Below are positions 9,064-54,110 of a stretch of 64,000 nt of DNA, in pieces (position 1 is the first letter of the stretch; each line of letters begins with the position of its first letter). The stretch is from Punctularia strigosozonata HHB-11173 SS5. Its lineage: Eukaryota; Basidiomycota; Agaricomycetes; Corticiales; Punctulariaceae. The stretch spans positions 603,989 to 667,988 of the forward strand of contig NW_006767438.1 in the NCBI RefSeq assembly GCF_000264995.1. The letters run 5' to 3'. The position numbers were made by a program, and so were the translations under genes. The notes beneath the pieces are model-generated. The model made no database searches and was not told where the DNA came from. It worked only from the letters and a program-made list of their open reading frames with translations.

Positions 9064-12000
9064 ATGGTCCTCCCAGCTAACGCGCCACTCATCTCGTTCA
9101 CCGACGCCGACTCCCAGGCGCGGGCTGCCGACGCTCGACACGGCGGCGACACTCCCCAAACGTCCACTCACCACTCGAGGACAGGCGCTCCGACCTTGGA
9201 CCACATGAAAACCGTAGTAGCCGCCGAACTTTACCAGCATACCTGCACCGTTTCCACTGAACAGTTCCTAAACCGCATTCTTCGCGTCGACCGGGACGTC
9301 GCTCAGCGTGTCTTGGACCACCTCGTCCTCAAAGAACGCTACCTCAATGAACGCTGGGTAGAGTTCCCGGAACGGATCTCCGCAGAGAGGGAGCTTTACG
9401 AGCCGTTCATCAGTCACGCGAGCGAAATCGGCGCCGTTCTGGAACAACTTGGAGAGACTCCGGAAACGCATGTCGTTTGGACGAATGGCGCGAATCTCGT
9501 TCCGCTTTCCGACAACGAGGCGGCAGCAAGGCTCCGTCCCGATATATTGGTCACACTCAAGGCTCAGCAGGAGCAACAGCAACAGGTTCGTGTCACCGTA
9601 GCATCCTTGGTCTGTTTGATGGGTTTTGCTTACGTGTCATGTGATACCAGCCCCATCCGCATTGGTTACGCGTTCAAGTCCCTGTGGAGGTCAAAAAAGA
9701 CTCGGACGAAGCTACCGTCGCAGACGCCCTTCCTCAACTTTGCAGATATATACGTCTAATCCTCAGCGAGCAGGTCAATCGACGCTTTGTTATCGGACTT
9801 TTATTATGCGGCACAAAACTCACGGTCTGGCTGTGCGATCGGTCTGGCTTAATAGGCACGCAAGCCGTCATCGACATACACAAGGTTGCACCCTTCTCGC
9901 TTCTTTTTCCAATCTTTCCTGACGCAGTCGTGCCCAGGAAGCCCTCTCCTTCGTTCGGATCATCATGTCGATTTCTCACCTGCCACCTGCCCATGTTGGC
10001 TGGGACCCGGATATGAAGCTGCTGCGCAGGGTGAAGGGCTTGGATAACGCGGATGGCGGTGCTGAAGACCAGGAAATAGACGAGGACGATTGGGCGGCGA
10101 TCGAGCCCACGGACCCATCCGTCGTGCCGGCCGACTTCGGAGGCTCGATCTATCGCACACGGTGGCAAATCACCGTACGCAGGCCTGATGGGGCTATTCA
10201 AGTCTTCCGCACTGTGGAACCTCTCAGCCTCTCGCGTTCGGCAGTTATGTGCGGCAGCGGGACTACTGTTTGGGAGGTGCAAGACGTTGACACCAAAGAG
10301 GTAAAGACGCCCGCTCTACCTCTGTTTCTATCCGTATATCTGACTACGGCGACATGGTCAGTTCTTCTCACTCAAGAGGATGTGGCGCATCGCCGGCTCT
10401 CCCTTAGAAGCAGATTTGAGACCCGATCTCCCTGATGATGCCCCTGTGGTCAAAATCTTGTATTCGGTGGATGCTTACGTCGGGGACGCTCTCGACAGCA
10501 CTCTAAGATTGATTCGGCAAGGCGTAGAACCAGACAAGCCCGCGAACATGGGCGATGGCGACAAGTTGAAATCGAAGAAGAGGACGTACGAAGATGTGAA
10601 CGTGAACGATAAAATCGTTCATATCGCCATGGTAGATGATAAGACGCTCGAAATCCTGAACAATCACCGCTCGCCCGACGAGCGCATCCGCACGTACACG
10701 TTGATGGCGACGCGTGGCTTTGCTATCAAGAGATTCAAGACTGTCCCTCAGCTCTTCGATGGAATGCGCGATTCTATCAAAGGTGCGAAGATCTGCCATG
10801 ATACTTACACTTTGGCTGATATGAGTCTCGTCGTTTCGGACGTAGGTCATCGAATGCTGTGGCTCAAGGGTCATCTCCATAGAGATATTAGCCCGGGTAA
10901 CCTCATCATTCCCCAGTCAGATGCCAAGTATGCTGGCTGCGTGATTGACCTTGATCACTCAAGGAAACTGGAGGGGACAGTAGCTACGTATCCGTTTCCA
11001 CAGGCGGATGTTGATGATTGCGCGACCGTCGTTCAACTGGCAAGCATTTACAAGATCAAAGTCTCGCCCACCACTGCGTCAAATCTGATGGCCGGCTTTC
11101 CGAACGCATATGCAGCGGTAGATTTTGTGAGGACCGTACAGGATTTCTTGTCCGACAAGGTACGGGCCCGCTGTCTTACACGTGCTGCAGTCACGACTCA
11201 CGCAATACGAAGCGAAATGTGGAAGGTTTCATACCAACAGTGAGTTTCGGGCGCATGGTCAAATCGAATGTCTTGTTCACAACATACTAGGAATCTTGGC
11301 CCGAGATGGATGACGGTGAAGACTCTTTTGTGCGCACGGTGCGGATCCTACGGCATACCAACAAACCAAGGGCTGACCTCTTTTGTAGGGCACTAAGGCC
11401 TTCATGAGCGCCGAGCTCTTTTCGGGTCAGCGATACTTTCCAAAGATCAAGGACTACAAGTTTCTGATACCGTCGGAGGAGAATGTCAAGCAGACCGTCA
11501 TCCACGATATCGAATCGTTCTTCTGGGTTTTGATCTATCTGTGCCTTACGCGCAAGGGTGACGGCAAGTGGCGCAAGGAACTGTGTGAAGATCCCCCAGA
11601 GGGCGATGTTAAGGCACAACGCCTGCACACCATCGTCTATTGTCTTTTCGACTCCTCCTTAGATCAGGTGCTCCAATACAACAAGAGGCAAGCCTTTGAG
11701 AATCCCTCCAAATTAGTCAAGTTCGTCATTCCTGCCTTTCACCCGGACCTGGCATGCTTTGGAGAGCTCGTACTGGACTGGTGGCGTCTCCTCATTTTCT
11801 CGTATCAGAACTATAACTACTTTACACCCGGAGTCATACACGATCAAGTCCTCAAGCTCTTCGACCGTCACTCGGATGCCATCAAGGCTCAGTTCGCCGC
11901 AAGGATGCCGCCCACCGAGGCCGGTCCGCTTGCTGGCCAAGTGTCATATGCGTCGGGCGAGCACCAGGACGCCGCATTGTCGCAGGAGATCGACGGAAAG

Positions 12001-12147
12001 CTCCATCAAACGAAATTTGAGACTCCTCGGAAACCGCAGACAAAGGCTGCACCGGGTAGTTTTGGTCACCCTATACCGTTCAATCCGACCCCGGACGTCA
12101 AATCCTCGAATCCTGCCTCTAAACGGGCGAAGGTGGGACGGAAATGA
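9064..12147 (+). CDS. FunK1-type protein kinase
   Basis: Seven exons: 9064-9585, 9651-9884, 9938-10300, 10362-11159, 11191-11225, 11291-11315 and 11389-12147 (2736 nt, 911 residues, all phases agree). The N-terminal half has the family block VPVEVKK...LCRYIR, LLLCG and LSHLPPAHVGWDP-type segments. The kinase core has GHLHRDISPGNLII (HRD catalytic loop) and CVIDLDHSRK in place of DFG, then GTKAFMSAEL and HDIESFFWVLIYL, hallmarks of the FunK1 family expanded in mushrooms. The C-terminus ends in a basic SKRAKVGRK that could be a nuclear signal. Exons 5 and 6 are only 35 and 25 nt. Targets of FunK1 kinases are unknown. Confidence 0.9.
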
Positions 12148-15277: not shown

Positions 15278-18200
15278 TTACGCCCCACTACGTCCGACCG
15301 CTCTCACTTCGCCCGATCGATCGAGCGCCGGCAGCGGCACCTGAGCGTCCCGCGACGACGGCGCAGGCAGGAACCCCGCCTCGACCAGCCAAGCGACGTA
15401 CTTGCCCATCAATTCGATCGACACCGTCATATTCGGCTCGCTCCCGTGATTTCCCAAGAGCCTGACCATGTTCGCGTCGTTCAGCTCCGGGGCCTTCGTG
15501 CTCGTCGGCAGATCGTCGAGCACAAAATGCAGCAGCGGGAAGAGCGCGTTGTCCTGGACATCCATGACGTGCTGCTCGAGCTTGCGCCGCCAGACCACGT
15601 ATTCACACGGCGCGGTGCCGTAGCCGTACCGCGCCAAAGAGGAGAGGATGTCGTTGAAGGTCGGCGTCGGCCGCGCGGTGACGTGCAGCACGGTCATGCC
15701 CGGATCCTCCAGCGGCGAAACGGCCGCGAGCGCGGTACCGCGCGCGACGTGGTCCACAGGGACCATGTTGACGGTGTTGTTGATGTCGGGGACAAGGCCG
15801 AGCTGCACGCATCCCTTGACCAAACGCCAGATGAAGTCGTCCGTATTCGTCACTATGCCGCGCCACCATCAAGGGCCGTCAGCGCCGTGCGGGGGAAAGT
15901 CTGAAGAAGTGAGCGCTTACCGGCGGTTCGGGAATCTCCCACGACGTAGCCAGGCCGCACGATGTGCCCCTTCAGCCCGCGCCTGCCCGCCTCGAACAGC
16001 AGCTTTTCGGATACCCACTTGCTCTGCCCGTAGCCTGTCTTAAGCGAGGACCGCGCGCCCTCCAAGTCGTCGTCTTCCGGCACACCGCGCTGCCCGTCGG
16101 GGTTGCCAGATAGAGAGTCGGACAAGCGAACGTAGTGCTCGACGTCGATGGCCGAGGTCGACGAGACGAACACGAGAGATTTCGGCTTCCCAGTGGCGGC
16201 GAGGTCCACGGCCGTGAGCGTGCCCAGTACGTTGGGCGAGCGCAGTTTCTCGTAGGGGTAAACCCAGTGCACCTTCCACAGCCATAAGCACCCGCATCCC
16301 GGAATACCACAAGAATATTCTTACCAGAGCCCCGTTATGAAGGACCACATCAGCCTCTGCGGCCGCTCGCTCCCATGCCGCCTGGTCGAGCCCGAGCCTT
16401 TCCTGGCCCAAATCTCCGATAGCGACGCTCAGCCTTCCAGACGTGACCCACGCCTCGTCCCAAACACCGCGATCGGTTGATAGCTCCCTCAACCGCGCCA
16501 GCGCCTTCTCTTCGCTCGACGCGCGAATCAAGCATATCACCTTTTGCACCTGGTCGTGGCGTCTAAGCAAATCCGCGAGGATGAACGCGCCCAGAAAGCC
16601 GGTGGCGCCGGTGAGGAACGCCGTCAGCGGTTTCGTGCCAAAATCAGGCGGAAGCGGCGCATAGGACGCGCGTAGCTTGGACAGGAGCGTGTCGTAGTCC
16701 TTCCCGTACTCCAGCGCAGACGAACTCGCCGGCTTCGCGGGCACAGCACCGGGCACCGCCAACTGAGAGGAAGACGGCTGCTGCTGACGCTGGCCGTTGT
16801 CCCTGTACGCAAAGGCCAGATCCGAGTTCCTCAGCGCGTCGACCTCGGCCGCGAGCCCGCCGATCGTCGGCTGATCGAACACGAGCCCGAGCGGCGCGTT
16901 CACGACGAACGTCTTGCGAATCTCGAAAATGAGCCGGGTCGCGAGGATCGAGTGCCCGCCGAGGTCGAAGAAGTTCTCGTCGAGCGGGATCGGCGACGGC
17001 GCGTTGGGTAGGATGCGCGCCCAGATGGCTTGCATCGCCTGCTCGGTCGGCGTGGCCTCGCGGGTGGGGCCCTTGGGTCGCTCCGCCGTGGCCGCCTGTG
17101 CGGTATCCGGGAACGGAAGGGCGGGTTTGTCGATCTTCCCGTTCGGGTTGAGCGGCATGCGCTTCAACGGGACGAACACTAGCACAGTTGTGATGAGTGT
17201 ATCGTACTCCGATGACAACCGAGCAAAACGTACGGGTAGGCACGCTATAACTCGGCAGCTTCTTCTTCAGATGCTCCCTGATATCCCTGATTAACCGCCT
17301 GTATCGCCTCATCCCTCTCACGAGCCCTCGCTCATCCTCGCTTTCCGGCACGTCGCTCTCGTACTCGCCAAGACCGGCCCCCTCGAGCGGGACAAAGTAG
17401 CTGACCAAGATCTTCTCCTCGTCTTTGTCCCTCCGCACGAGCGTCACGTTCTCCCTCACGAGCGGGTGCTGGCTCAGATGCGTATCTATCTCGCCGAGCT
17501 CGATCCTGAACCCGCGTATCTTGACCTGGTCGTCCGCCCTGCCCGTGCACTCCACGATCCCGTCGGGGAGGTACCGCCCGAGGTCTCCCGAGCGGTACAT
17601 CCTATCCCGCACGCCCTTCCAGTACTTCGCCTCAGGGCCGGGCTCGCCCCCACCCGGCGGATGCGATATCGTGTCCTCCGGCGGCGGCGCGCCGTCCGCG
17701 AACCAGTTCCCCACAAACTTCTCCGCGGTCGCCTGCGGATCGGAGTACCCCTCCGCGAGCCCGCCCGAGCGCACGTATATCTCGCCGACCTCGCCCACCG
17801 CACATAACACGTTCCTGTCCGTCCTGTTCACGACGAGCAGCTGCACGTCGACCATCCCCTCCCCGGCGGGCATCACGTCCTTCTGCGTCGCGAGGAACGT
17901 CGCGTCCTCGGCCACGCTCGGGATGGCGAAATACGACACCGCGCGCTGCGTCTCCGTCGTGCCGTACATGTTCACGATCCGCACGTTCGCGGCCAGCGCC
18001 TGGAGACGCAGGCAGTCCCGCTTCGTGAGCACGTCGCCGACGAAGAAGGCGTTCAGGAGGGACGGGATCTGCCGCGTCGCCTGCGCGGAGAGCAGCTGGC
18101 CCATGGCCGGCGTCAGGTGCGTCACCGTGACGCCGCTGTCGGCCATCCACTCCGCGAGCCGGCCGGGCGTGCCGATGTCGTCCGCCGTCGGGACGTGCAG

Positions 18201-19940
18201 CTCGGCGCCGAAGAACAGCGGGGTGAACACTGGCGGGGGAGCGGAAAAGAAACGAATCAGCGTGACATTCGACGCGGGGGGTTCAACCAAACCGATTGGG
18301 AGTGGGAGACTAACTGTCGCGCTGGATGGGATCGTGCGCGATCCCGCTCAGCATGGTAAACTTCGAGTGCTCGCCGAGCCCGAACCGCTCGCCCATCCAC
18401 GGGAAAAAGTGCGTGAGGCTGTAATGCCGGCCCTTGACGCCCTTGGGAATGCCCGTGCTTCCGCTCGTGAACGAGAGCGTGGCGACACTGTCCAGGCCGA
18501 GCACGATCCCGGGGTCGGTCGTCCCTAGCTCCCGTTGAGGGGCAAGGGCATCGTCGGCGTCGCCCAGGGACCCGCCGAGAACGGTCCCGTCCGCGAGAAG
18601 CTCGAGCGCGGGCACCTCGACGCGGATCTGCAACTCGGTGGAGATGAAGTCGCGCACGGACGGGCTGATGGTGCCGGCGCCTTTGAGCACGACAAGACCG
18701 CGAGGGGCGGCCACACGGAGGTAGATGGTCTGGCGAGAAGGCGGGTAGGCGGGATCTGGAATGGTCACGGTAGGTCGTCAGAACGAATGTATGCGTATAT
18801 ATGCGCCCATACGAGAAACGTACCGATGACCGAGAACGTGGCGCCGACTTTGAGGATGGCCATGACGGCGATGACCATCTCCACGCTCCTGTACGCGTAC
18901 ACCATCACGACCTCCTCGCGCTGCACGCCGCCCTTGATGAGATGGTGCGCGAGCACGTTCGACGCGCGCCAGATCTGGCCGTACGTGTACGACCTCCGCT
19001 CCTGGCGCACGTCGAGGCTCGGCGCGGCGTAGCTCTGGATCACGCAGGGCCGGTCGGGGAAGGCGCGCGCGTTGCGAGAGAAGACGTCGGGGATGGCGCC
19101 TTTGAAGTCGCACCAGTGGAGGTCGCCCGTGGGGTCGGGCAGGCGCGCGCGCTGGGACGAGGTGAGGAGCGGAACGGCGCCGACGGGCGCGAGCGGGTTC
19201 GCGGCGGCCTTGCGGAGGAGGGTGGAGAGCTGCTCGACAACGTAGGCGATGCGGACGGGGGAGAAGAGGAGAGAGTTGTAGAGAATGCGGAGGCTGATTT
19301 TGGGCGCGAGCGAGTGGTGGGTGGAGGCAGGGGGCCGCATGACGAAGATGGTGAGGTCAGAGGTGAGGCTCGTCGAGCGCACAAAGTGGTCCTTCTCGTC
19401 CGTCTCGTCGAAGAAGCGCACGCGGAAGAGCGGGCGCGTGCTGTCATCTCCTGTGCCCGATCCTGAGGCCTTGCCGAGCGCGCGGAGGATGTCGTCGTAC
19501 GGTACAAGATCGGCTTCGGCCTCGGCTTCTGCTTGCTGAACCTTGCGCACGACGGCCCAGAAGGGATCGGTAGGGTCGACGCCTAATCGGAGGAGGAGCG
19601 GGTCGCGTGAGGAGGCGGAGGAGGAGGCAATGACGAGGTCGGTGTCGCCCGTGTAGCGGTGGAGGAGGACGGAGAAGGCGGCCAGGAGGAGATGGAAGGC
19701 GGAGGGCGTGTTGGGAGCGGAGGTGGAGGTGCCCTCGCCGTCGTCCGCATCGTCGTCTTCGTTCTCGGTGAAGACGGTGAGCTTGAGGAGGCTGCGCGAG
19801 GTCTGCTCGGGGAGCTCGGCGGCGTGAACGGCCTCGACGACGCGCTGGCCGTCGGATGGCCGTGGATAGTCCGTCGGGAGCGCGATCGCGGGCAGATTTT
19901 GGAGGCGGGCGACGACCCGGGCGAGTTTTTCGCTCGTCAT
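15278..19940 (-). CDS. LYS2: L-2-aminoadipate reductase (large subunit), lysine biosynthesis
   Basis: Six exons: 19940-18824, 18755-18315, 18229-17234, 17178-16325, 16272-15921 and 15852-15278 (4335 nt, 1444 residues, frame kept throughout). Domain order is adenylation, carrier, reductase. Adenylation motifs include [47 protein letters not shown] and [11 protein letters not shown]. The carrier site is [14 protein letters not shown] with the phosphopantetheine serine. The reductase has GATGFLGAF (NADPH binding) and YGQSKW (Tyr/Lys of the SDR fold). [17 protein letters not shown] is typical of aminoadipate reductases and separates this from other NRPS-like enzymes. It reduces alpha-aminoadipate to its semialdehyde and needs a phosphopantetheinyl transferase (LYS5), not seen here. 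It looks intact. Confidence 0.95.
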
Positions 19941-20399
19941 TTTGCTGGTTTTGCGTATCTAGCCTGCAACGCGGCGTGAACGGCCAGAGTGCGAAGGCAA
20001 GCCTGGTTTTTCCCCTGTGCGGGCGAAGAGCCGGCAAGGAAATTTGGACGAGGGGGAGAGCAGGGGCCGGTGCTAATCATCGCGAATCGAGTCGAAGATG
20101 AAAAAGGCCGACGCAAAGCCGATCCGTCGCAGTACCGAGCGCCTTCACTTCGACCTCCACCTTCATCTCGTCTTCAGCTCTTGCATCCTTCATGTTGCCC
20201 CTTGTTGTCGCCGGGACAGATATGCTCTGACTGACGCATCTCTCCGGCTTGATCTATAACGGCGTCGCCACCACATACTCACGTCAGTCCACCAGCGCTC
20301 GCACGGAACGCTACAAACGTCGTCGTTGGGATGAGAGGCTTCAAAAGGCCATAATATGTGTACTCTCAAGGATGCCCAGCAGACCGCCCCACGAACGAG
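19941..20399. promoter_or_regulatory. Divergent intergenic region, LYS2 / peptide 1
   Basis: Holds the 5' regions of LYS2 (minus) and the first cysteine-rich peptide gene (plus). No clear TATA box was seen for either. No Lys14- or Gcn4-like site was recognised with confidence. Confidence 0.35.
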
Positions 20400-20579
20400 A
20401 TGCACCTGAACTTCTCCACCCTTATCATGTTTCTCTTCATCGTGGGCGCGCCCTCTCTCGCCCACCTTATGGTTAGCAAATCCGACGCAGGCGACCTCCC
20501 TATTAGGACAGACTGTTGTCTACCGATCTGCCACCTGCAGGGCCCCGAACACTCTCCAGCGCAGTGCCTGTGCTGCTAA
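20400..20579 (+). CDS. Small secreted cysteine-rich peptide 1 (CC-C-C-CC)
   Basis: A 59-residue intronless frame. The N-terminus (MHLNFSTLIMFLFIVGAPSLA) is a clear signal peptide with likely cleavage after Ala21. The mature part is about 38 residues with exactly six cysteines, all near the C-terminus, in the order CC-x3-C-x11-C-x-CC, and the last residue is Cys. The same arrangement recurs at 22237-22461 and 23079-23249, while the other residues hardly match. I chose ATG 20400 over the longer frame starting upstream because it begins directly at the signal peptide. Function unknown; secreted effector, signal or antimicrobial roles are possible and untested. Confidence 0.75.
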   Translation: MHLNFSTLIMFLFIVGAPSLAHLMVSKSDAGDLPIRTDCCLPICHLQGPEHSPAQCLCC

Positions 20580-22236
20580 CCCGACGAATGCGAGCGCTAA
20601 GGTACGGCCATCTACCTTCTTCATCCTATCAGATGGCTGACGGACCTAAGCAGGGCATCCGGGCGGTGTAGTTCGGTACTCGGTGTGCCTACAAGACCCG
20701 GGCGATACCATTGTGATGAACGTAGATCCCCGCATCATCAACAACGTGCTGCACCTCATTCCATCTCGTACAGTGCCGGCTTGGCTATATCCGCGCCGCA
20801 CTTATGCCTATATACCGTTGTTATCCAAAGAGCTATGATAAATCGCTGTTCCGTCCTATCCCCGACCTTGCCCGTAGGTCGTATGAATACGCGAGTGTTG
20901 CTATCAACATCTCAGGCTGCGCCGCACACGTCAAGCTGCGTCAGCCGTGCTCGATGGCACAGCCCGGCAGCGTCCTCGATATGTTCCACCGTCAAGAGGC
21001 TCATACGCCTGTCGCAGATGCACGATTCATACCGACCGGATCATCGCAACGCCCACTCAACCACGGGCCCTGTCTCCTCTATCGCCGCCCGAAGGCAAAC
21101 CGGCTGCCAAATCCACCTCACTCGAATAGGGTGGCGTGTTGCTAATCCAATCACGGGTCGCATAAAACCAAGCCTCCGTCTCCGCACGACATCGAGAGCG
21201 CTGAATCCCAAACGCAGGAGAATAGACAGGATGGCTGCGGGTCCGTGACAGCGCTATTGGACACGGCGGTGCCCGAACACTTTGGGGGATAGGTTACATT
21301 ATTGCGATACATTTCTCGCAGCCGGGACCGAAGCAATGTCGTCCCGATTCTACAACCTGAATGCGCCACACACTCAGGCGTACACTCCATGACCTTCATC
21401 CCGCAACTCAAAGGACACTGTCATCATGCAGGCTCTCCGAAGTGCCTCGTGCCATCCTGTGGCGCACTTGGGAGTCACCACGCCTACCTTCTGCTTCCAC
21501 GCTTCCCTCTCCAGCGCAGGTCCCATGACCTCGGAAATAGGCCACGCTATCCCTTCGCCAAGGCAACGCCCGTATTCGCTCGCTCATTCTGTCGGGCGGT
21601 ATCACCATGAGCGGATACGCCGCGACTCCAGACCACTCTAGTGTGTGATGTGCGTACGCATCATTTGTCGATGCTCTCATGCACGTAGAGCGCCGAACCG
21701 CGCCTGCCCTCGGCGCGACGGTATAAACGCTGCCGCGCGCGGCCTGCTTACTGCCCACCACAAAGGCTAAGCACGATCCAGCCATGCTGTTATCAGTCTA
21801 CCGCTGGAGACCGCCGCGGAAGATAAGTTTTGTCCTAGATCCATTTCGTGCCCAAGAACCCTCAACGTTATTGCATCGCTCGCTCTTTCGCCGTCCTATC
21901 GAGCAGCCACCGGTGTCGTGTATCGGTCCACTTGCCCAGATACCGGCGCCCACCCGATACGGGAACCGACCCTGAGACGTTTCGCCATATTCACCCATGT
22001 CCGCCTGCCCACAGTCATTATACCCACCGCCCAGGGAACTGACGCACGGATCCGCTTCTTCGTGCCTCCTCCCCGCCCCGCTTCCTCGGACGGACGGATA
22101 CGTAGGAAGGCAACGCTCGGGCTTCGCCTCGCACGGCGTTCTGAATCACGAGCAGAAAATAGCTTTTGGCTTTAAGAGAACGCGCTCGACCCTATCGATA
22201 TCTGCCACTCGCGCTCATCCGTGCACTCCGGTCATC
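20580..22236. other. Intergenic region between peptides 1 and 2
   Basis: Only chance-like frames are seen. One plus frame (20804-21145) ends in CC but lacks a signal peptide and the CxCC ending, so I do not count it as a family member. A TTTAAGA about 65 bp before the ATG of peptide 2 (about 22171) is a weak TATA candidate. Confidence 0.4.
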
Positions 22237-22461
22237 ATGCGGGCTGGCGCCGCCATCAACCTCGCTGCTATCATCGTGCCAATGATAGTCGCCTCTGGTG
22301 CTGCAGCATATCCTAGTCCGAACCTCGGCGCGCTGCTTCCCATACCTCTCGAGGAGGGCCCGGCGGCGCGGATGATGTCCCGTTCCAAGTGCTGTCAGAG
22401 CGTTTGCACACCGCAGCAGGTCATCAGCTTCAATCCGCCGACGAAATGCTCTTGCTGCTGA
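22237..22461 (+). CDS. Small secreted cysteine-rich peptide 2 (CC-C-C-CC)
   Basis: A 74-residue intronless frame. The signal peptide MRAGAAINLAAIIVPMIVAS is likely cut after the Ala triplet at 22-24. The mature part is about 50 residues: a Pro/Leu-rich, cysteine-free stretch, then six cysteines as CC-x3-C-x13-C-x-CC (KCCQSVC ... KCSCC) at the very end. No other cysteine is present. The spacing is the same as in peptides 1 and 3 except for the middle loop. The Pro-rich stretch could be a propeptide, but no dibasic Kex2 site is evident (only SRSK before the first Cys). Confidence 0.75.
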   Translation: MRAGAAINLAAIIVPMIVASGAAAYPSPNLGALLPIPLEEGPAARMMSRSKCCQSVCTPQQVISFNPPTKCSCC

Positions 22462-23078
22462 CGTCGCTTGTGAGATCGGGCTGGTTTCCATATCGTGAGT
22501 GTACGACGCATTTCTGAGGCTTTCGGCTGAGTTGAGGGGTATTAGATCGGCTCCTCGAGCGGGGGTCATACCGGCGACGTTGCGGGCGACTTTGACGGTT
22601 TCTCCAAAATCACACCGCTCTTACACGTCAAACACGATCGTGCTGGGAGCACTCGAGTGCCTGCGTGCGGGGTAATGAGGGAAGGGCGCCGATCTTGTAT
22701 ATCACAGAGAGAATCGTCCCTGGCGAACAGCGCACGGTGGGCAGCTGTCTTCCTCACCGCGCATCAGTCGTGTACGAACGGAGGACTCGCGCTCCCATAC
22801 TATCACCATCGGTTTTTTTTGCTTTCTGTTCTTTGACCAGCTATCTTTCTATCTTCGTACAAGCGTAGAACTATCTCTCATCCGGCAACCTTGCATGTCG
22901 ATGAACATAACCCACTAGTTCGTGCTTATCCAACACGGTCTTGCGCAAGAATACTGTTTGGGTATATATATATACCGCCGTGTGCGCACATACGCAGAAT
23001 GTACAACACACAGCAATAGAAGAACCTGATATATAACCCCATCCCTTACTCCCTGTTAACAGCGTCCCATTTACCTCC
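22462..23078. promoter_or_regulatory. Intergenic region with TATA boxes for peptide 3
   Basis: A long TATATATATATA run lies at about 22963-22974, about 105 bp before the ATG of peptide 3, and a second ATATATAA at about 23029-23036. The first is the better placed core promoter. No gene is recognised in the rest. Confidence 0.5.
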
Positions 23079-23249
23079 ATGCGCGCGCCTACAATGCACT
23101 TCTCACTAAGCCAAGCCGTCACCGTCTTATTCTTTCTATTATCAGCATCCACCGCTGCACACGCGCAAGGGAGACCTCCCGTCGACTGCTGTCAAGAGGA
23201 GTGCGGGGGCGTGTTGGATCCTGGAGAGCGTTCGTGCTCATGCTGTTGA
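23079..23249 (+). CDS. Small secreted cysteine-rich peptide 3 (CC-C-C-CC)
   Basis: A 56-residue intronless frame, too short for a usual length cut-off. Two in-frame ATGs (23079 and 23094) precede a strong signal peptide (HFSLSQAVTVLFFLLSASTA) with likely cleavage after AHA at residue 29. The mature peptide is about 27 residues, QGRPPVDCC onward, with six cysteines as CC-x3-C-x10-C-x-CC, ending in CSCC at the stop (23247-23249). It is the most compact of the three and nearly all framework. Up to three disulfide bonds are possible. The pattern and the strong TATA-containing upstream region argue for a real gene. Confidence 0.75.
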   Translation: MRAPTMHFSLSQAVTVLFFLLSASTAAHAQGRPPVDCCQEECGGVLDPGERSCSCC

Positions 23250-23929
23250 TGAGGTAAGGTGTTCTCCCGATTCTCCCGATCGTCAGATCACAATGAGACT
23301 AGGCTCGTTCACAAGCGGTGAGCAGCGCGTGCATCCAGAGCGGGCAAATCCGTAATGGCCTTGAGCCAGTAGTATTCGCTCCCTGGAACAATTAATCAGC
23401 GCGGATGCACGTCCGATGTACACGATATGGAGTGTAATACTATTTTCCCACCGCATTCCGTTCGATACCAGTGGATCGCGCTTCGCCCACCTACCACGTA
23501 ATGCGAATAGAGTCACGAAGTGTTCCTATACACCAGCGCTATCATTAGTGCTCCGCCTTGTGATACCAACAATGAATTGTTTACATTCAGCGATTGATTA
23601 TAACATGAACCGCCAATTGCCTGGGTCCTTCGGTGTTGAATATCATGTTCATGGAAGGCACGCCCCAGCTATTGAGAGACGTACTCGGGTCTAAACCATG
23701 TTCTCGGAAATCGACTATTGGCGAGGTACCGCCCTCCCAAATCCGTAAGAGGATTGATATCGTCACATCATGGTTCACTATTGGTAGGAAGCATGGCGGT
23801 TCAGCTATAATTTGGAACCCAGCACTAGATTTGTGCGCGAGCTCCTCTGTCGCCTTCCTCTTACGCACGCAACACGTGAATAATGCTCCGTTGGTTCAAG
23901 CCCTATCGAGTACACAATCCGGAAATTGG
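23250..23929. other. No gene recognised
   Basis: A 93-codon minus frame (23587-23868) lies just downstream of the gene at 23930-24442 but shows no similarity to it or to any family I know. Confidence 0.35.
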
Positions 23930-24442
23930 TCACTCCGTCGTCTGGGTGGGTCGGACCTTGCTCGCCCACTGAAGATAGGAGTATACTCCCAGCACCACCG
24001 TGCTCAGCATCGTCTGCAGGCGCTGTGGGGCATCGGGTCCGTCGTGGCTGCACAGGGCAAAGTCATTGGTCGCCTCGCGGCCTATATCAGCGATGATTGT
24101 CGAGAGGGTCCTCTCGTAAGTCCAGGAGAGCCCTTCGGGATTGAGATCGTCGAGTACCTGCCACAACGGAGCTATGTCGCTAACGAGCGCATGCCATACG
24201 TTGAGTTTGCCTATCGCTTCCGGTGACAGATATTCGTCGGGGTGGTCCCGACACCAGGTAGCTTGCCTGACCAGCGCGGAGTAACAGTGTTTCCAAGCGG
24301 GCACCATCTGTTTAGAAACGATGAAACGGTTGAACGCCGTATTGAAGCGGATAGAGCAATCCCGGCCTACCGCCTCGGTCCGAGGTTCATTCTCAATGCT
24401 ATGCACGACGCTCATCATGTACTCTTCAATATTGACCGCCAT
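23930..24442 (-). CDS. Unknown protein, tandem paralogue 2
   Basis: A 170-residue frame starting MAVNIEEYMMS. It is predicted soluble and helical, rich in Trp and Ala. LNVWHALVSDIAPLWQVLDD, TLSTIIADIGREA and VLGVYSYLQW line up with WNALAGRDEPPWRRV, TLLSLVAREAYVLS and THSFLLWHR in the neighbour at 24463-25052, so the two are tandem paralogues lying head to tail 20 bp apart. An additional short 5' exon, as in the neighbour, is possible but not found. I do not recognise the family. Confidence 0.6.
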   Translation of the reverse strand: MAVNIEEYMMSVVHSIENEPRTEAVGRDCSIRFNTAFNRFIVSKQMVPAWKHCYSALVRQATWCRDHPDEYLSPEAIGKLNVWHALVSDIAPLWQVLDDLNPEGLSWTYERTLSTIIADIGREATNDFALCSHDGPDAPQRLQTMLSTVVLGVYSYLQWASKVRPTQTTE

Positions 24443-24462: not shown

Positions 24463-25052
24463 TCAATGCAAGGAGGACCTGCAAAACGTGAGAATTCGGA
24501 CCAACTCGAAACCCTGTCGGCTGCCTGTCATCGGTAACGCATGCCGGGTGATGTCAGGTTTTCGTATGCTCCGGTGCCACAGCAGGAACGAGTGTGTCGA
24601 GGCTGCGGCCACTCTGAGTGACTCTTGGATGGGGTCCTCCTCGTCGCTGTCGCGTCCATGGGTCACGGAGAGCACGTAGGCCTCGCGTGCGACCAGACTC
24701 AGAAGTGTGTCGCGATTCACGGCCACACGTCGCCAAGGGGGTTCATCGCGACCCGCCAAAGCATTCCATGCAGCAGCGAGCCCCACCACCTCCGGGTCAA
24801 ACTGCTGGCCTGCAGAATATGGCGGCATGCACGCTTCGTAGGCAGCAACATGCGCTCGGGCGTAGGCGTCGTCCCAAGGTCGCTGTCGGCATCGGTTCAG
24901 AGCAGGGTTCGACTTGGGGACCATTTAGGGACACAACGCACCGTTTCCTCGCGGCCTAGAGCCAGGTCTTGGAGAAACTCGTAAAAAGCTGCCTCAGACT
25001 CTACGCCGTGACCAGTTTCCGTCACATAGTCTGGAGGGTCGTAATCATCCAT
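24463..25052 (-). CDS. Unknown protein, tandem paralogue 1
   Basis: Two exons: 25052-24942 and 24882-24463 (111+420 nt, 176 residues), joined in phase 0 by a 59-bp GT-AG intron. It starts MDDYDPPDYVTETG, has an acidic N-terminus (FYEFLQDLALGREET) and then a helical region with WNALAGRDEPPWRRV. No signal peptide, membrane segment or known motif is seen. It shares its central 90 residues with the neighbour downstream at 23930-24442. The close spacing suggests a recent tandem duplication followed by strong divergence. Confidence 0.65.
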
Positions 25053-40420: not shown

Positions 40421-43400
40421 TCATTGAGCCTTCTTGAGAAGATCCTGCCAGTCGATGGCAAGCTTCGTCAGTGTCTTGCTTCGAGCTATGGATGCATTAG
40501 TGCTGATTCCCAACCTCCATGATAAATCGATGCTTACCAAATATATTCAAAACTTCTTTCAGCAAGTCACGCTTTGAGATGCCGAGCACCGTCGGACACC
40601 AGGACTCGTCCTTACCTGGCCGCCTGCCGGATGGCTTAGTGCGAAGCACTGGACAAATCATTGTACAACACCTACCAGTAGACCGGCCCGAAAAGCTCTT
40701 TCACCAATTCCTCGGCTTTGCTCCTAAACCCCTCGTTGGCTATTCGCTGGGCGTACACCAACAGCACCTGCTTGTACTCTGACGGACTGTCCAGGACTTT
40801 GGCTGCAGACATCTTGCTTTCCAAATGCCCCAGCGTCAAGGCAGCATTCCACCACTCAGGTCGAGGCTTCTCGCCTGCCGCGGCCGCACCATTGTACGCG
40901 TCATTGTCGAGCACACCGGCTCCGCGCACGAGCTCGTTTATGCTCTGTTCGACCGCGGCGACGACGCCGTGTCCCCGAGCGCCCGTATTGTTGCCGCGCC
41001 CGCGGCCCTGCCACACGTCGGAGCCTTCCATCCACCATTTGTCGCTGAGCTTGATCCAGGTGGACAGACCAGGGTCGTAGGAATGCGCAACGCCGGTGGA
41101 TAACTGGATGACGGGAGAGCCATTGGCGCGAACGGAGGCGGAGAGGACTTCGCATGCAGATGGCTGGAGGATCGGAAGAATCGATACCGGACTGTATACT
41201 GCGCGTTGTTGCTTCACATTCCTAGATGGTCGTGAGATCAAGCGAAGCGAACGAAACAAACATAACATACCACGCGTACAGCTGCCCTGACGACGTCAAT
41301 GCCATCAGGGAATCCTCACAAGCATCGAGGTAGGAGCACGGCGATCCTAAGCTCAGCGTGGGCATTAACCTGTTGCGAATCACAATCAACATCCGTCTCC
41401 TACTCTATAAGCATGAAACTCCGCCTACCTGCGCCCTGTGTGGGAATAGATATTCACCGACCCATCCACCAAAGCCACCGCGCAGAAATGGCTCGATGCG
41501 GCCAAGATCGAAACAGGGGAAGGCAAGTAGTCCAACCACTGCGTTTGCTTTCCCTGTGCGAACAGCACCTCATTCGCACCTGCAGTCGAAAGATGAGATC
41601 GGACGATACGGGCAACTGGACTCTGGAATGCAGCTCACCACCATTCTCCGGATTCCTCCCTTCAAGCACCGCATCGGTCGACCCGCCTCCGGACACCTTC
41701 ACCGCCACGCTCAGGAACGTCAGTAGCGGTGGTGTGGGTAAGTTGACGCCTAGCCCGGACCCTCCAGCGACCACGACGCTTCCCTGTGCTGGCTGCGCCA
41801 TACCAAGCTGTTTGGGTCTCACAGCCTCCCGAGGCCGGTCTCCTCCCAGCGTCCTCGGCTTCGAGGTCTTTCCTCCCACGCCCAAACCTTCGTCGGGTTC
41901 TATAGCGCGCTTGCCTTTCTCATCCAGCGCGGCTATGCTCGCGTATCCCCTTCCGTCGACGTCCATGTCCGCTCCACCCATGCTCGAATCGAACAAGTCG
42001 CTCGACGTCGTCCGGAACGGGTCGGTGTGTAGAGATTCCTGGCGAGCGCGGCCCGCCCGCGAAAAGGTGCTCGCCAGAGGCGTACTCGTCCCCGACGCCT
42101 CGCCGAATCCAAAGGAATCACTCTCGGAGATGACTGATCCATTGGGGGCTAAGGGTTGTGGAGGCGGAGCCTGAGATACCGGAGCGCTCGAAATCGATGC
42201 GGAGGGCATCCCTGCGGAAGGCACGCTGGAGGGGTTGAACGGCCCGCTCTGCCGCCTCCTGAAGTCCTTGGGTTTCCTCTTCGCCACTAACTTGTTGATC
42301 GTCTCCGGTTGGGGTGTGATTACTCTCGGTGCCGCGGGCTGGCTGGTTTTGGTAGGTGACGGTCCGGTTTTGTTCTTCTCCCCGACGCTGTACCGCGAGG
42401 ATGGATGCGGGACGTGCACGTATCCCTCTGGTAGCGGTGGAGGCACGAACTTGAATTTAGTGAGGTACTGCTCCTGGGCATCGAAGGGTGCGATACCCTC
42501 AAGCTCTTCCGGATCGAAGTCGAATGCAGCCAGTGTGCCGTCCGAGGAGACGGCGTACAGCGTGAGGCCATCCCAAGACCTTCGTGAGATGCAGAATGAG
42601 CGTCGTAGATTTGTCGCTGATTGAAAGAGTTTCACCAAGCAAGGTCCATGATCTGCCTCTCGAAAACCTCCTTTGCAACAATGATCGGTCTTGCTGACTT
42701 GGTCTGCCATACCGACACCGCTCTATCGTCCGCGCCCAGAGCAACAACGGAACATATGTTCGACGTCGATACTTCACCCGCCGGGTTCCGCAAAAAGACG
42801 TGAGGGTTATATGCCTATCATACAGAGGCATCAGTATATGCAATGAATATCCAAACAGCAATGACGAGCGGCGTACAGCAACTTCGACGGTATTTTCGTG
42901 CCCGACGAGACTGATGTCCGAGGTCCACACTGTGCGAGCAATCACAGCCGCGATAAACACGAAGCCTTTTGCGTTCACGGCGTTTGATGCGGTTATATGC
43001 GCGCCGTCTGGTGACCAACTATGACGTCGTCAGCCTCGAGCTACGAGAGATACAACGAGGACGACGAAGCACTGGATTCTGAGCCCCCGTCTAGACCATT
43101 CGGGGATTGGGCTCACCTGAGTCGTCTGAAGAAAGTCGAACCGGGAGAATGCTCGAACGGCTTCCTTATCTCAGCCTCCAGCTGCCAGTCGGTGGTGCGC
43201 CATATCTTGACGGTGCGATCGTCGGATTGGGTCGCGAGAAACTCGCCAACGGGATCCCAGCATACACCTTTGACGAATCCTTGATGCAGGTCGAGCTTAC
43301 GAAGGCGCTCTGGAATTGAAACGAGTGAGCCTTCAGTACGAGGATCCAACAAACCAAGCGGAGAGCAGTTACAACCACTAACCGAGGGTGAAACCGCACC

Positions 43401-52050: not shown

Positions 52051-54110
52051 ATGCTCTCCGCCGGTGCTCTCATATGGGTGTCCCTCAGACCCCTCATCCG
52101 ACTGTACGCCAAGAGCTTAGCGTCGAGAGAGTTCCCGCTGAACGTGACGTATTGCAGGGTACTAGCCACGTCCTTCGGGTTCGCGATAACGAAGGCGGAT
52201 ATCTTCCCTGCGGTTGCAGCGAGGGGAGCGGGTCAGATTATGCTTGTAAGCGCCTTGCCAGTAGCCTCGGAGTGACGCTCACACCTCATTAGAACATCGC
52301 TTTGCCATGCCTGATGTTCTCCAAAATCGTCCCGGCTTTCACGACTCAGAATATCTCTGCCCTTGGTACGCTGCGTTCGGTCCTCGCATTATTCAACACA
52401 CCTAACCAAGCATGTGCAGGTCCTCTTGTCCTGGTTGCAATCATTTACCAGGCCTTGGGTGTCGCCTTCGCCTGGGCCATCAAACAGGTCTTCTGGGTCC
52501 CGCATCGCTTCCGATACGGCATTCTCGTTGCGGGCGGCTTCGGTAACACTGGCGATATCCGTGAGCAGACGGTGTCCTGCGCGATTCCACGCGCCCTGCC
52601 CTGGCCCATCCAACTCACGCCCGTGATTTTGTCTGCTCTGATCCGTTGACCTTGTGATGTTCTCCCAAACCTCGAAGCGACGGCCGTCGTCATGAGTATA
52701 GCAGGCAACGCGCCTTTCAACGGCACAGAGGATCAGAATCTCGCAGTCGCATACATCGCTGCATTCATCCTCGTTTTCTTCGTAAGATGTCCCTTCTCTG
52801 TGGAACGATCTTTTATTTCAAATGCGTTATCAGGTGCTTCTCTTTCCCGCGGGAGGCCACCGATTGATAGCATGGGACTACATTGGACCAGACGTCGAGG
52901 ACGAGGAAGTCCGGGAAGCCACTAGGATCAATCGCAGAAATCTTTTCTTGGCCCCGCTCTCCTCCCTACGGAAGCGGGTTCGATCGACGCCGGAGAAAAC
53001 CCCTGAGCCAGCGACAGACGACGATGTGGAGAAAGGCGTCCAACAGCCCCAGTCGACATCGCAGAAACTGGCGTCAGGCGCGGCTCCAGAGTGCCCGCCC
53101 TTTCATCGCTCTGCCACCAGCAAACACGTCTCGTTCTTCGACGACGAACCGGACGTCGAGGGCACCACCGTGTTCGCTCGTTCACCCGCCACGACGCTGC
53201 ACGCAACATCCCGTGTCACCTCCCCCGCACCCACGGTTACCCATATTGACGGAGACGACCAACCGGGCCCCAGCGGGAACTCCACTAAATCGCCTCCAGT
53301 ACCCGCCTTATCGACTCCGGCCCCGCCTCCACCACCCCGACGCCGACACCCCCTCCTAAGGCACTCCCAAACCTTCCTCAAATCCCTCCTCACGCCCTCC
53401 TCCATCTCCATCATCCTCGCCTTCATCATCGCGCTCGTTAACCCGCTCAAAGCGCTCTTCGTCACCGTCGACGGCTGGACGGGCACGCGCATCCCCAATG
53501 CGCCCGACGGCCAGCCGCCGCTCGCCTTCGTCATGGACACGGCCAGCTTCGTCGGCGCCGCCAGCGTGCCCCTCGGCCTCACCTGCCTCGGCTCTGCCCT
53601 GGCGCGACTGAAGATCCCGAGTGGGGAGTGGAAAAACCTGCCGCTGGGGGCCATCAGCAGCCTCGCCGTCGCGCGGATGATCCTCATCCCCGTCATTGGA
53701 GTGATCATGTGTCAAGGGTTGGCCACGGCCGGAGTCATCGATCCAAACGACAAGGTGTTGCGATTCGTGTGCATGTAAGGGTCCAGAAGCTTCGTATATT
53801 CGAATGACGCGGAACTAAGCTGCTCGTCGTCTAGATTCTTGGCCTGCTTGCCGACGGCGACAACTCAAGTATGACTGTGCATTGGTGGTGTCATAACCCG
53901 CTGATACCGGTTTCTCATTCAGGTGTTCCTCACGCAAGTCTACAGCGGAACCGGCGACGCCAGCGTCCTCTCAGGTTCGTCCAAAGTGGAATATCCCGTT
54001 CGTGAAGCTCACCCACCGGCGGTTCATCAGCATTCCTCATACCGCAATACGCGATCATGGTGGTATCGATGACCGCCCTAACGGCGTACACGATCACCTT
54101 GATCTTCTAA
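52051..54110 (+). CDS. PIN-like/auxin efflux carrier family membrane protein
   Basis: Multi-exon gene from ATG 52051 (MLSAGALIWVSLRPLIRLY) to the stop at 54108-54110. Family landmarks: GFAITKADIFPAVAARGAGQIML, NIALPCLMFSKIVPAFTTQNI, LVLVAIIYQALGVAFAW, KQVFWVPHRFRYGILVAGG, GDIPTAVVMSIAGNAPF, AVAYIAAFILVFF. A long hydrophilic central loop (about 150 residues, Pro/Ser-rich and acidic) follows, then SSISIILAFIIALVNPLKALF, FVGAASVPLGLTCLGSALARL, AISSLAVARMILIPVIGV, TQVYSGTGDASVLS and AFLIPQYAIMVVSMTALTAYTITLIF. These are two bundles of about five helices, as in the Mem_trans (PF03547) family; yeast ECM3-type proteins are relatives. The substrate in fungi is unknown. Confidence 0.85.

What the first reader, a model, noticed from the sequence alone, without database searches (positions are those of the whole stretch)
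20400..23249. Local family of three tiny secreted peptides sharing one six-cysteine code (CC-x3-C-x10-13-C-x-CC)
Three plus-strand intronless genes within 2.9 kb encode peptides of 59, 74 and 56 residues. Each has a strong signal peptide, no cysteine outside the C-terminal block, six cysteines in the order CC-C-C-CC with identical short spacings (3 and 1), and ends exactly on the last Cys. Apart from the signal and the cysteines they share almost no residues, as expected for fast-evolving secreted peptides. The order of cysteines is the same as that of framework III disulfide-rich peptides of other kingdoms; this is probably convergence. I know no described fungal family with this pattern. One member is under 60 codons, so standard pipelines would miss it.
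Basis: partly seen in the sequence, partly recalled or inferred. Interest (0 to 1): 0.88.

Follow-up and report, generated by a model that had tools for sequence, protein, structure and literature searches.

The report
Three tiny secreted six-cysteine fungal peptides
A short stretch of what looks like a mushroom-type fungal genome holds three neighbouring tiny genes whose predicted secreted peptides share one unusual six-cysteine pattern but little else, which looks like a small, fast-changing peptide family that standard gene-finding could easily miss.

Summary
Three plus-strand ORFs (20400-20579, 22237-22461, 23079 or 23094-23249) each encode a signal-peptide-like leader and a C-terminal CC-x3-C-x(11, 13, 10)-C-x-CC that ends on the stop codon, with no other cysteine. 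The pattern occurs three times in the window's six frames, only here, and zero times in 800 Markov-simulated windows, so chance is very unlikely. Common ancestry is suggested for p1 and p3 (leader P=0.007) but not for p2, which is tied in by framework, place and strand alone. No relative appeared in Pfam, NCBIfam, PDB sequences, viral contigs or (p3 only) prokaryote genomes. No fungal genome collection, transcript or proteome was available, so spread, expression and selection are untested. Cysteine order equals conotoxin framework III with an M1-type third loop, and also the inner six of the hydrophobin order; both are resemblance, not membership. Most likely these are secreted three-disulfide mini-peptides displaying a variable 10-13-residue loop, used outside the cell in defence or antagonism, or in host interaction. 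That function is inferred.

The parts
20400..20579 (+). p1, 59-aa ORF: leader (possible cleavage after residue 21), spacer, six-cysteine block at 20514-20576, stop
22237..22461 (+). p2, 74-aa ORF: leader (possible cleavage after residue 24), 27-aa spacer without dibasic site, six-cysteine block at 22390-22458, stop
23079..23249 (+). p3, 56-aa ORF; likely start at the second ATG (23094, 51 aa); six-cysteine block at 23187-23246, stop
22963..22974 (+). TATA-like run, 131 nt before the second ATG of p3; possible promoter element, weak
20602..20653 (+). possible 3'-UTR intron of p1 (GTACGG, CTGAC, AAGCAG; 52 nt); conjectural

Best explanation
The three genes are a small cluster of (probably paralogous) genes for secreted disulfide-rich mini-peptides. 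Shown here: three uninterrupted ORFs on one strand, each with a hydrophobic leader and one six-cysteine framework at the extreme C-terminus, and the rarity of that framework in simulated sequence. Inferred: the leader is removed in the ER, the six cysteines form three disulfides, and the CC and C-x-CC ends clamp a 10-13-residue loop that differs in sequence and length between copies and binds an extracellular target. The lack of strong positive charge fits selective binding better than membrane lysis. I take chemical defence or antagonism by the fungus as the likeliest use (about 0.4 on its own), ahead of host-directed effector, signalling and metal-binding roles.
For: Tight pattern 3 real against 0 in 800 simulated windows. 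Of all ATG ORFs of 40-130 codons in six frames, three pass a crude leader plus even-cysteine (4 or more) filter and they are these; 60 simulated windows averaged 0.63 such ORFs, 0.1 with exactly six cysteines. p1-p3 leader P=0.007 (one of three pairs). p1 and p3 find each other full length as best non-self match in the window, E 0.054 and 0.039 (see the caveat under evidence against). A Pkinase_fungal gene suggests a fungus; its abundance in Agaricomycetes is recalled. Computed block charges at pH 7 with reduced cysteines: -1.1, +0.7, -3.3.
Against: No transcript or protein evidence. Cysteine blocks are no more alike than permuted ones and p2's leader resembles neither other leader (P 0.70, 0.32). 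The tblastn E-values near 0.05 are not decisive: p2 has an unrelated best match at E=0.049 and finds p3 only at E=3.0. No DNA similarity between the loci beyond chance-size matches. AlphaFold2 gave no confident fold: mean pLDDT 62.5 for the p3 precursor, 54.0 for p2 without its leader (three-sequence alignments). No dibasic site in 3 of 3, so release of a defined core is not evident. No homologue in the collections searched; the contig collections among them are of viruses and prokaryotes.
Confidence: 0.6

Rival explanations
1. Host-directed effectors or symbiosis peptides: they act on receptors or proteases of a plant, animal or fungal partner.
For: Small, predicted secreted, cysteine-rich, clustered and divergent. 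PMC8715435 (passages) proposes cysteine spacing as a way to class fungal effectors, by analogy with conotoxins.
Against: Lifestyle of the organism unknown; no expression data.
Confidence: 0.25
2. Secreted metal-binding or thiol peptides: the CC and C-x-CC motifs bind copper or zinc rather than forming disulfides.
For: Six cysteines in 20-23 residues with adjacent and C-x-C pairs.
Against: A secretory leader implies an oxidising route; that fungal metallothioneins are cytosolic is recalled.
Confidence: 0.1
3. Signalling or developmental peptides of the fungus itself.
For: Cysteine-rich secreted peptides signal in plants (PMC12605736, abstract beginning in a listing); I noticed no fungal example in my search listings.
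Against: Loop 2 differs in length and sequence between neighbouring copies, which is unlike ligands of one receptor.
Confidence: 0.1
4. Not a family: chance ORFs, or unrelated genes that converged on one pattern.
For: Cysteine blocks no more alike than permuted ones, p2 leader unlike the others, no shared DNA.
Against: 0 in 800 simulated windows for the exact pattern against three real cases within 2.9 kb on one strand. Chance is very unlikely; convergence of neighbours is possible but less economical than duplication.
Confidence: 0.08

Closest known systems
Conotoxin M-superfamily, framework III, M1 branch (cone snails)
   Same: Cysteine order CC-C-C-CC; sub-groups are named by the size of the third loop, here one residue as in M1 (PMC4278219, section 21 read); small secreted precursors
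   Different: Fungal-type window; block of 20-23 residues with loop 2 of 10-13, whereas the M1 examples named there, mr3e and tx3a, have 16 and 15 residues in all; no conotoxin among PDB sequence matches up to E=10
Hydrophobins
   Same: Small secreted cysteine-rich fungal proteins; their order C-CC-C-C-CC-C contains CC-C-C-CC as its inner six (PMC8596622 passages)
   Different: Eight cysteines and about 100 aa; the first and last cysteine are absent here; hydrophobin loops are much longer than 3 and 1 (recalled); no Pfam hydrophobin match
Theta-defensins
   Same: Listed with CC-C-C-CC spacing in PMC5522442 (passage)
   Different: Cyclic primate peptides (recalled); not compared by sequence beyond the PDB searches
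KEX2-processed repeat proteins and dikaritins of fungi
   Same: Precursors of short secreted peptides, studied in Agaricomycetes (PMC9769878 passages)
   Different: Those have repeated cores between dibasic sites; here no KR, RR, KK or RK. The words cysteine and disulfide have 0 occurrences in that paper's main text
Beta-ginkgotides
   Same: About 2-kDa six-cysteine peptides with adjacent cysteines (abstract beginning; passages)
   Different: Order C-CC-C-CC; plant origin

Membership tests
Conotoxin M-superfamily (framework III) | Cysteine order CC-C-C-CC | tested here: met
   against PMC4278219 section 21
Conotoxin M-superfamily (framework III) | M-superfamily signal sequence, which defines the superfamily | not tested
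   no such leader was fetched; that the signal sequence defines each superfamily is in a figure legend passage of PMC4278219
Conotoxin M-superfamily (framework III) | Sequence similarity to solved members | tested here: not met
   5 PDB sequence searches, no conotoxin up to E=10; chains under 20 residues are not in that set and short peptides score poorly, so the test is weak
Conotoxin M-superfamily (framework III) | Disulfide connectivity | not testable with these tools
   no confident model
Hydrophobin | Eight cysteines in the order C-CC-C-C-CC-C | tested here: not met
   six cysteines only; the inner order agrees, the outer two are missing
Hydrophobin | Match to the Pfam hydrophobin models | tested here: not met
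   no hydrophobin among matches up to E=10 for the three ORFs
KEX2-processed repeat proteins / dikaritins | Repeated cores between dibasic sites | tested here: not met
   no KR, RR, KK or RK in 3 of 3
Fungal small secreted cysteine-rich proteins (broad class) | Short, N-terminal signal peptide, at least 5% cysteine | tested here: met
   six cysteines in 59, 74 and 51-56 aa; crude leader filter passed; the 5% threshold is quoted in PMC8596622. SignalP not available
Fungal small secreted cysteine-rich proteins (broad class) | Actual expression and secretion | not testable with these tools
   no RNA-seq or proteomics at hand

The most novel reading that the evidence does not exclude
Mushroom-type fungi have their own, so far undescribed superfamily of toxin-like mini-peptides with the framework III order best known from cone snails: a fixed disulfide clamp with a hypervariable 10-13-residue loop, diversified by local duplication and overlooked because the genes are under about 75 codons.
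Probability: 0.3. Interest if true: 0.8.

Novelty: new variant of a known kind. Interest (0 to 1): 0.58.

Why it matters
If real and widespread, it would be a fungal case of convergent evolution on a venom-like cysteine framework and an easily synthesised disulfide scaffold. It would also suggest that mushroom secretomes are under-annotated below 75 codons, which a pattern search of existing fungal genomes could test at once.

Tried and rejected
Searches without relatives: viral contigs with p3, p1 and p2 (72, 5 and 36 pattern matches, none confirmed by tblastn), prokaryote genome contigs with p3 only (592 pattern matches, none confirmed; p1 and p2 not sent there), Pfam and NCBIfam (only DUF3930 for p1 at E=0.2, 11.9 bits against a cut-off of 25, over residues 6-25, the hydrophobic leader), PDB sequences (weak matches only: p2 to insulin at E 0.36 and 0.98, the alignment to a PKD2L1 channel at E 0.62). 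Single-protein contig searches find close relatives only, and the contig collections are of viruses and prokaryotes, so the misses say little about fungal relatives. Phage and plasmid collections were not searched.

Further members: a one-intron spliced search of the window found no additional copy (its one printed 'spliced' row is p3 itself with a spurious intron removed upstream of its start). tblastn of the three peptides against the window gave, besides p1, p2 and p3, only weak hits that I judged by eye to lack the framework. Repeats of 20 nt or more in 19900-24400: two two-copy direct families, no inverted pair. A DNA alignment of the three loci was uninformative. No tRNA and no Rfam family in the window.

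A shared 3'-UTR intron was considered: a GT[AG]NG site begins 23, 9 and 5 nt after the three stops. 14.3% of 25-mers in the window hold such a site (p1's runs two bases past 25), the feature was picked after looking, and only p1's candidate shows a branch-point-like site, so I do not rely on it.

Structure searches were not run, because both models are of too low confidence.

Full report
What is there. The three ORFs exist as described. p1 is 20400-20579 (59 aa), p2 22237-22461 (74 aa), p3 23079-23249 (56 aa, or 51 aa from the second ATG at 23094, which has A at -3 and lines up with p1). Each has a hydrophobic leader, no cysteine before the block, and a block CC-x3-C-x(11, 13, 10)-C-x-CC directly followed by the stop. 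The genes lie on one strand; from stop to next start the gaps are about 1.7 and 0.6 kb. p1 starts 460 nt from the first ATG of a divergent minus-strand ORF with condensation and AMP-binding domains.

Is it chance? The tight pattern is found 3 times in six frames of the window and in 0 of 200 third-order and 0 of 600 fourth-order Markov windows; the reversed, uncomplemented window gives 0. Relaxed patterns find the same three and no others, against a mean of 0.065 per simulated window and 15 in 600 (limits differ slightly). Requiring only a crude leader and an even number (at least four) of cysteines leaves three ATG ORFs of 40-130 codons, again these; 60 simulated windows average 0.63, and 0.1 with exactly six cysteines. 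C-x-CC-stop occurs three times in the window, each time here. Patterns and filter were set after seeing the peptides, and no null from real fungal genomes was available.

Is it a family? p1 and p3 may well be homologous: their leaders are more alike than permuted ones (P=0.007, one of three pairs; p1-p2 0.70, p2-p3 0.32), and each is the other's best non-self match in the window over full length (E 0.054 and 0.039). That E-value alone is not decisive, since p2 has an unrelated match at 0.049 and finds p3 only at 3.0. With the cysteines held fixed no pair is significant over its whole length (P 0.11, 0.11, 0.62) or in the cysteine block (P 0.35, 0.91, 0.48), and blastn between the loci found only chance-size matches. 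p2 is linked by framework, place and strand; it shares the CSCC ending with p3, and MAFFT aligns one loop-2 proline in all three.

Whose genome? No whole genome is held for the window, which fits, among other things, a eukaryote. A Pkinase_fungal match at 10344-11240 (E 4.8e-14) points to a fungus and a Hira domain to a eukaryote; the placing in Agaricomycetes rests on recalled knowledge of the kinase family and was not tested.

How it most likely works. The anatomy (leader, short spacer, compact even-cysteine end) is that of a secreted disulfide-rich peptide. The two clustered ends would clamp loop 2 as the only sizeable variable surface; block masses are 2.1-2.5 kDa and charges at pH 7 are -1.1, +0.7 and -3.3 (reduced form), which speaks against cationic lytic peptides. 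I infer selective binding of an extracellular target, most likely in defence or antagonism. Host-directed effectors are the main rival, then metal binding and signalling. AlphaFold2 gave no usable fold (p3 precursor pLDDT 62.5; p2 without leader 54.0), so connectivity and fold remain open.

What is known. Framework III (CC-C-C-CC) typifies most M-superfamily conotoxins, sub-grouped by the number of residues in the third loop (PMC4278219, passages, section 21); that one residue means M1 is my reading of that sentence. The two M1 peptides whose length is given there have 15 and 16 residues, fewer than the 20-23 here. PMC5522442 (passages) names conotoxins and theta-defensins as carriers of CC-C-C-CC spacing. 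The hydrophobin order C-CC-C-C-CC-C (PMC8596622 passages) contains the same inner order, so the order as such is not foreign to fungi; the outer cysteines are missing here, hydrophobin spacings are far longer (recalled), and Pfam gives no match. PMC8715435 (passages) suggests that fungal effectors might be classed by cysteine spacing as conotoxins are. In ten full-text searches I noticed no title or abstract beginning that describes such a family in fungi; listings were capped at 20 while up to 2,509 papers matched, one search matched none, and subscription journals are mostly not held.

Verdict. A real feature, far from random under the nulls used; a new variant of the broad class of fungal small secreted cysteine-rich peptides. 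The stronger claim, a fungal superfamily of toxin-like peptides, is open and easy to test with existing fungal genomes.

Noticed in passing
window 16647-19940, minus strand: Condensation and AMP-binding domain matches (NRPS-like gene), divergent from p1 with its first ATG 460 nt away; whether it has any link to the peptides is unknown.
   Followed up: partly
window 23933-24442 and 24466-24924, minus strand: Two neighbouring ORFs weakly similar to each other (21% over 103 aa, E=1e-4 in a two-sequence comparison) without Pfam match up to E=0.01; possible duplicated gene or domain.
   Followed up: partly
window 10344-12144, plus strand: Two open stretches matching a fungal-type protein kinase, Pkinase_fungal PF17667 (the second falls just under the curated cut-off).
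   Followed up: partly
window 52786-53775, plus strand; 40675-41295, minus strand: Mem_trans transporter match and Hira/TUP1-like domain match: ordinary conserved genes.
   Followed up: no
window 20602, 22470 and 23254, plus strand: A splice-donor-like GT[AG]NG begins 23, 9 and 5 nt after the three stop codons; may be chance or a shared 3'-UTR intron.
   Followed up: partly
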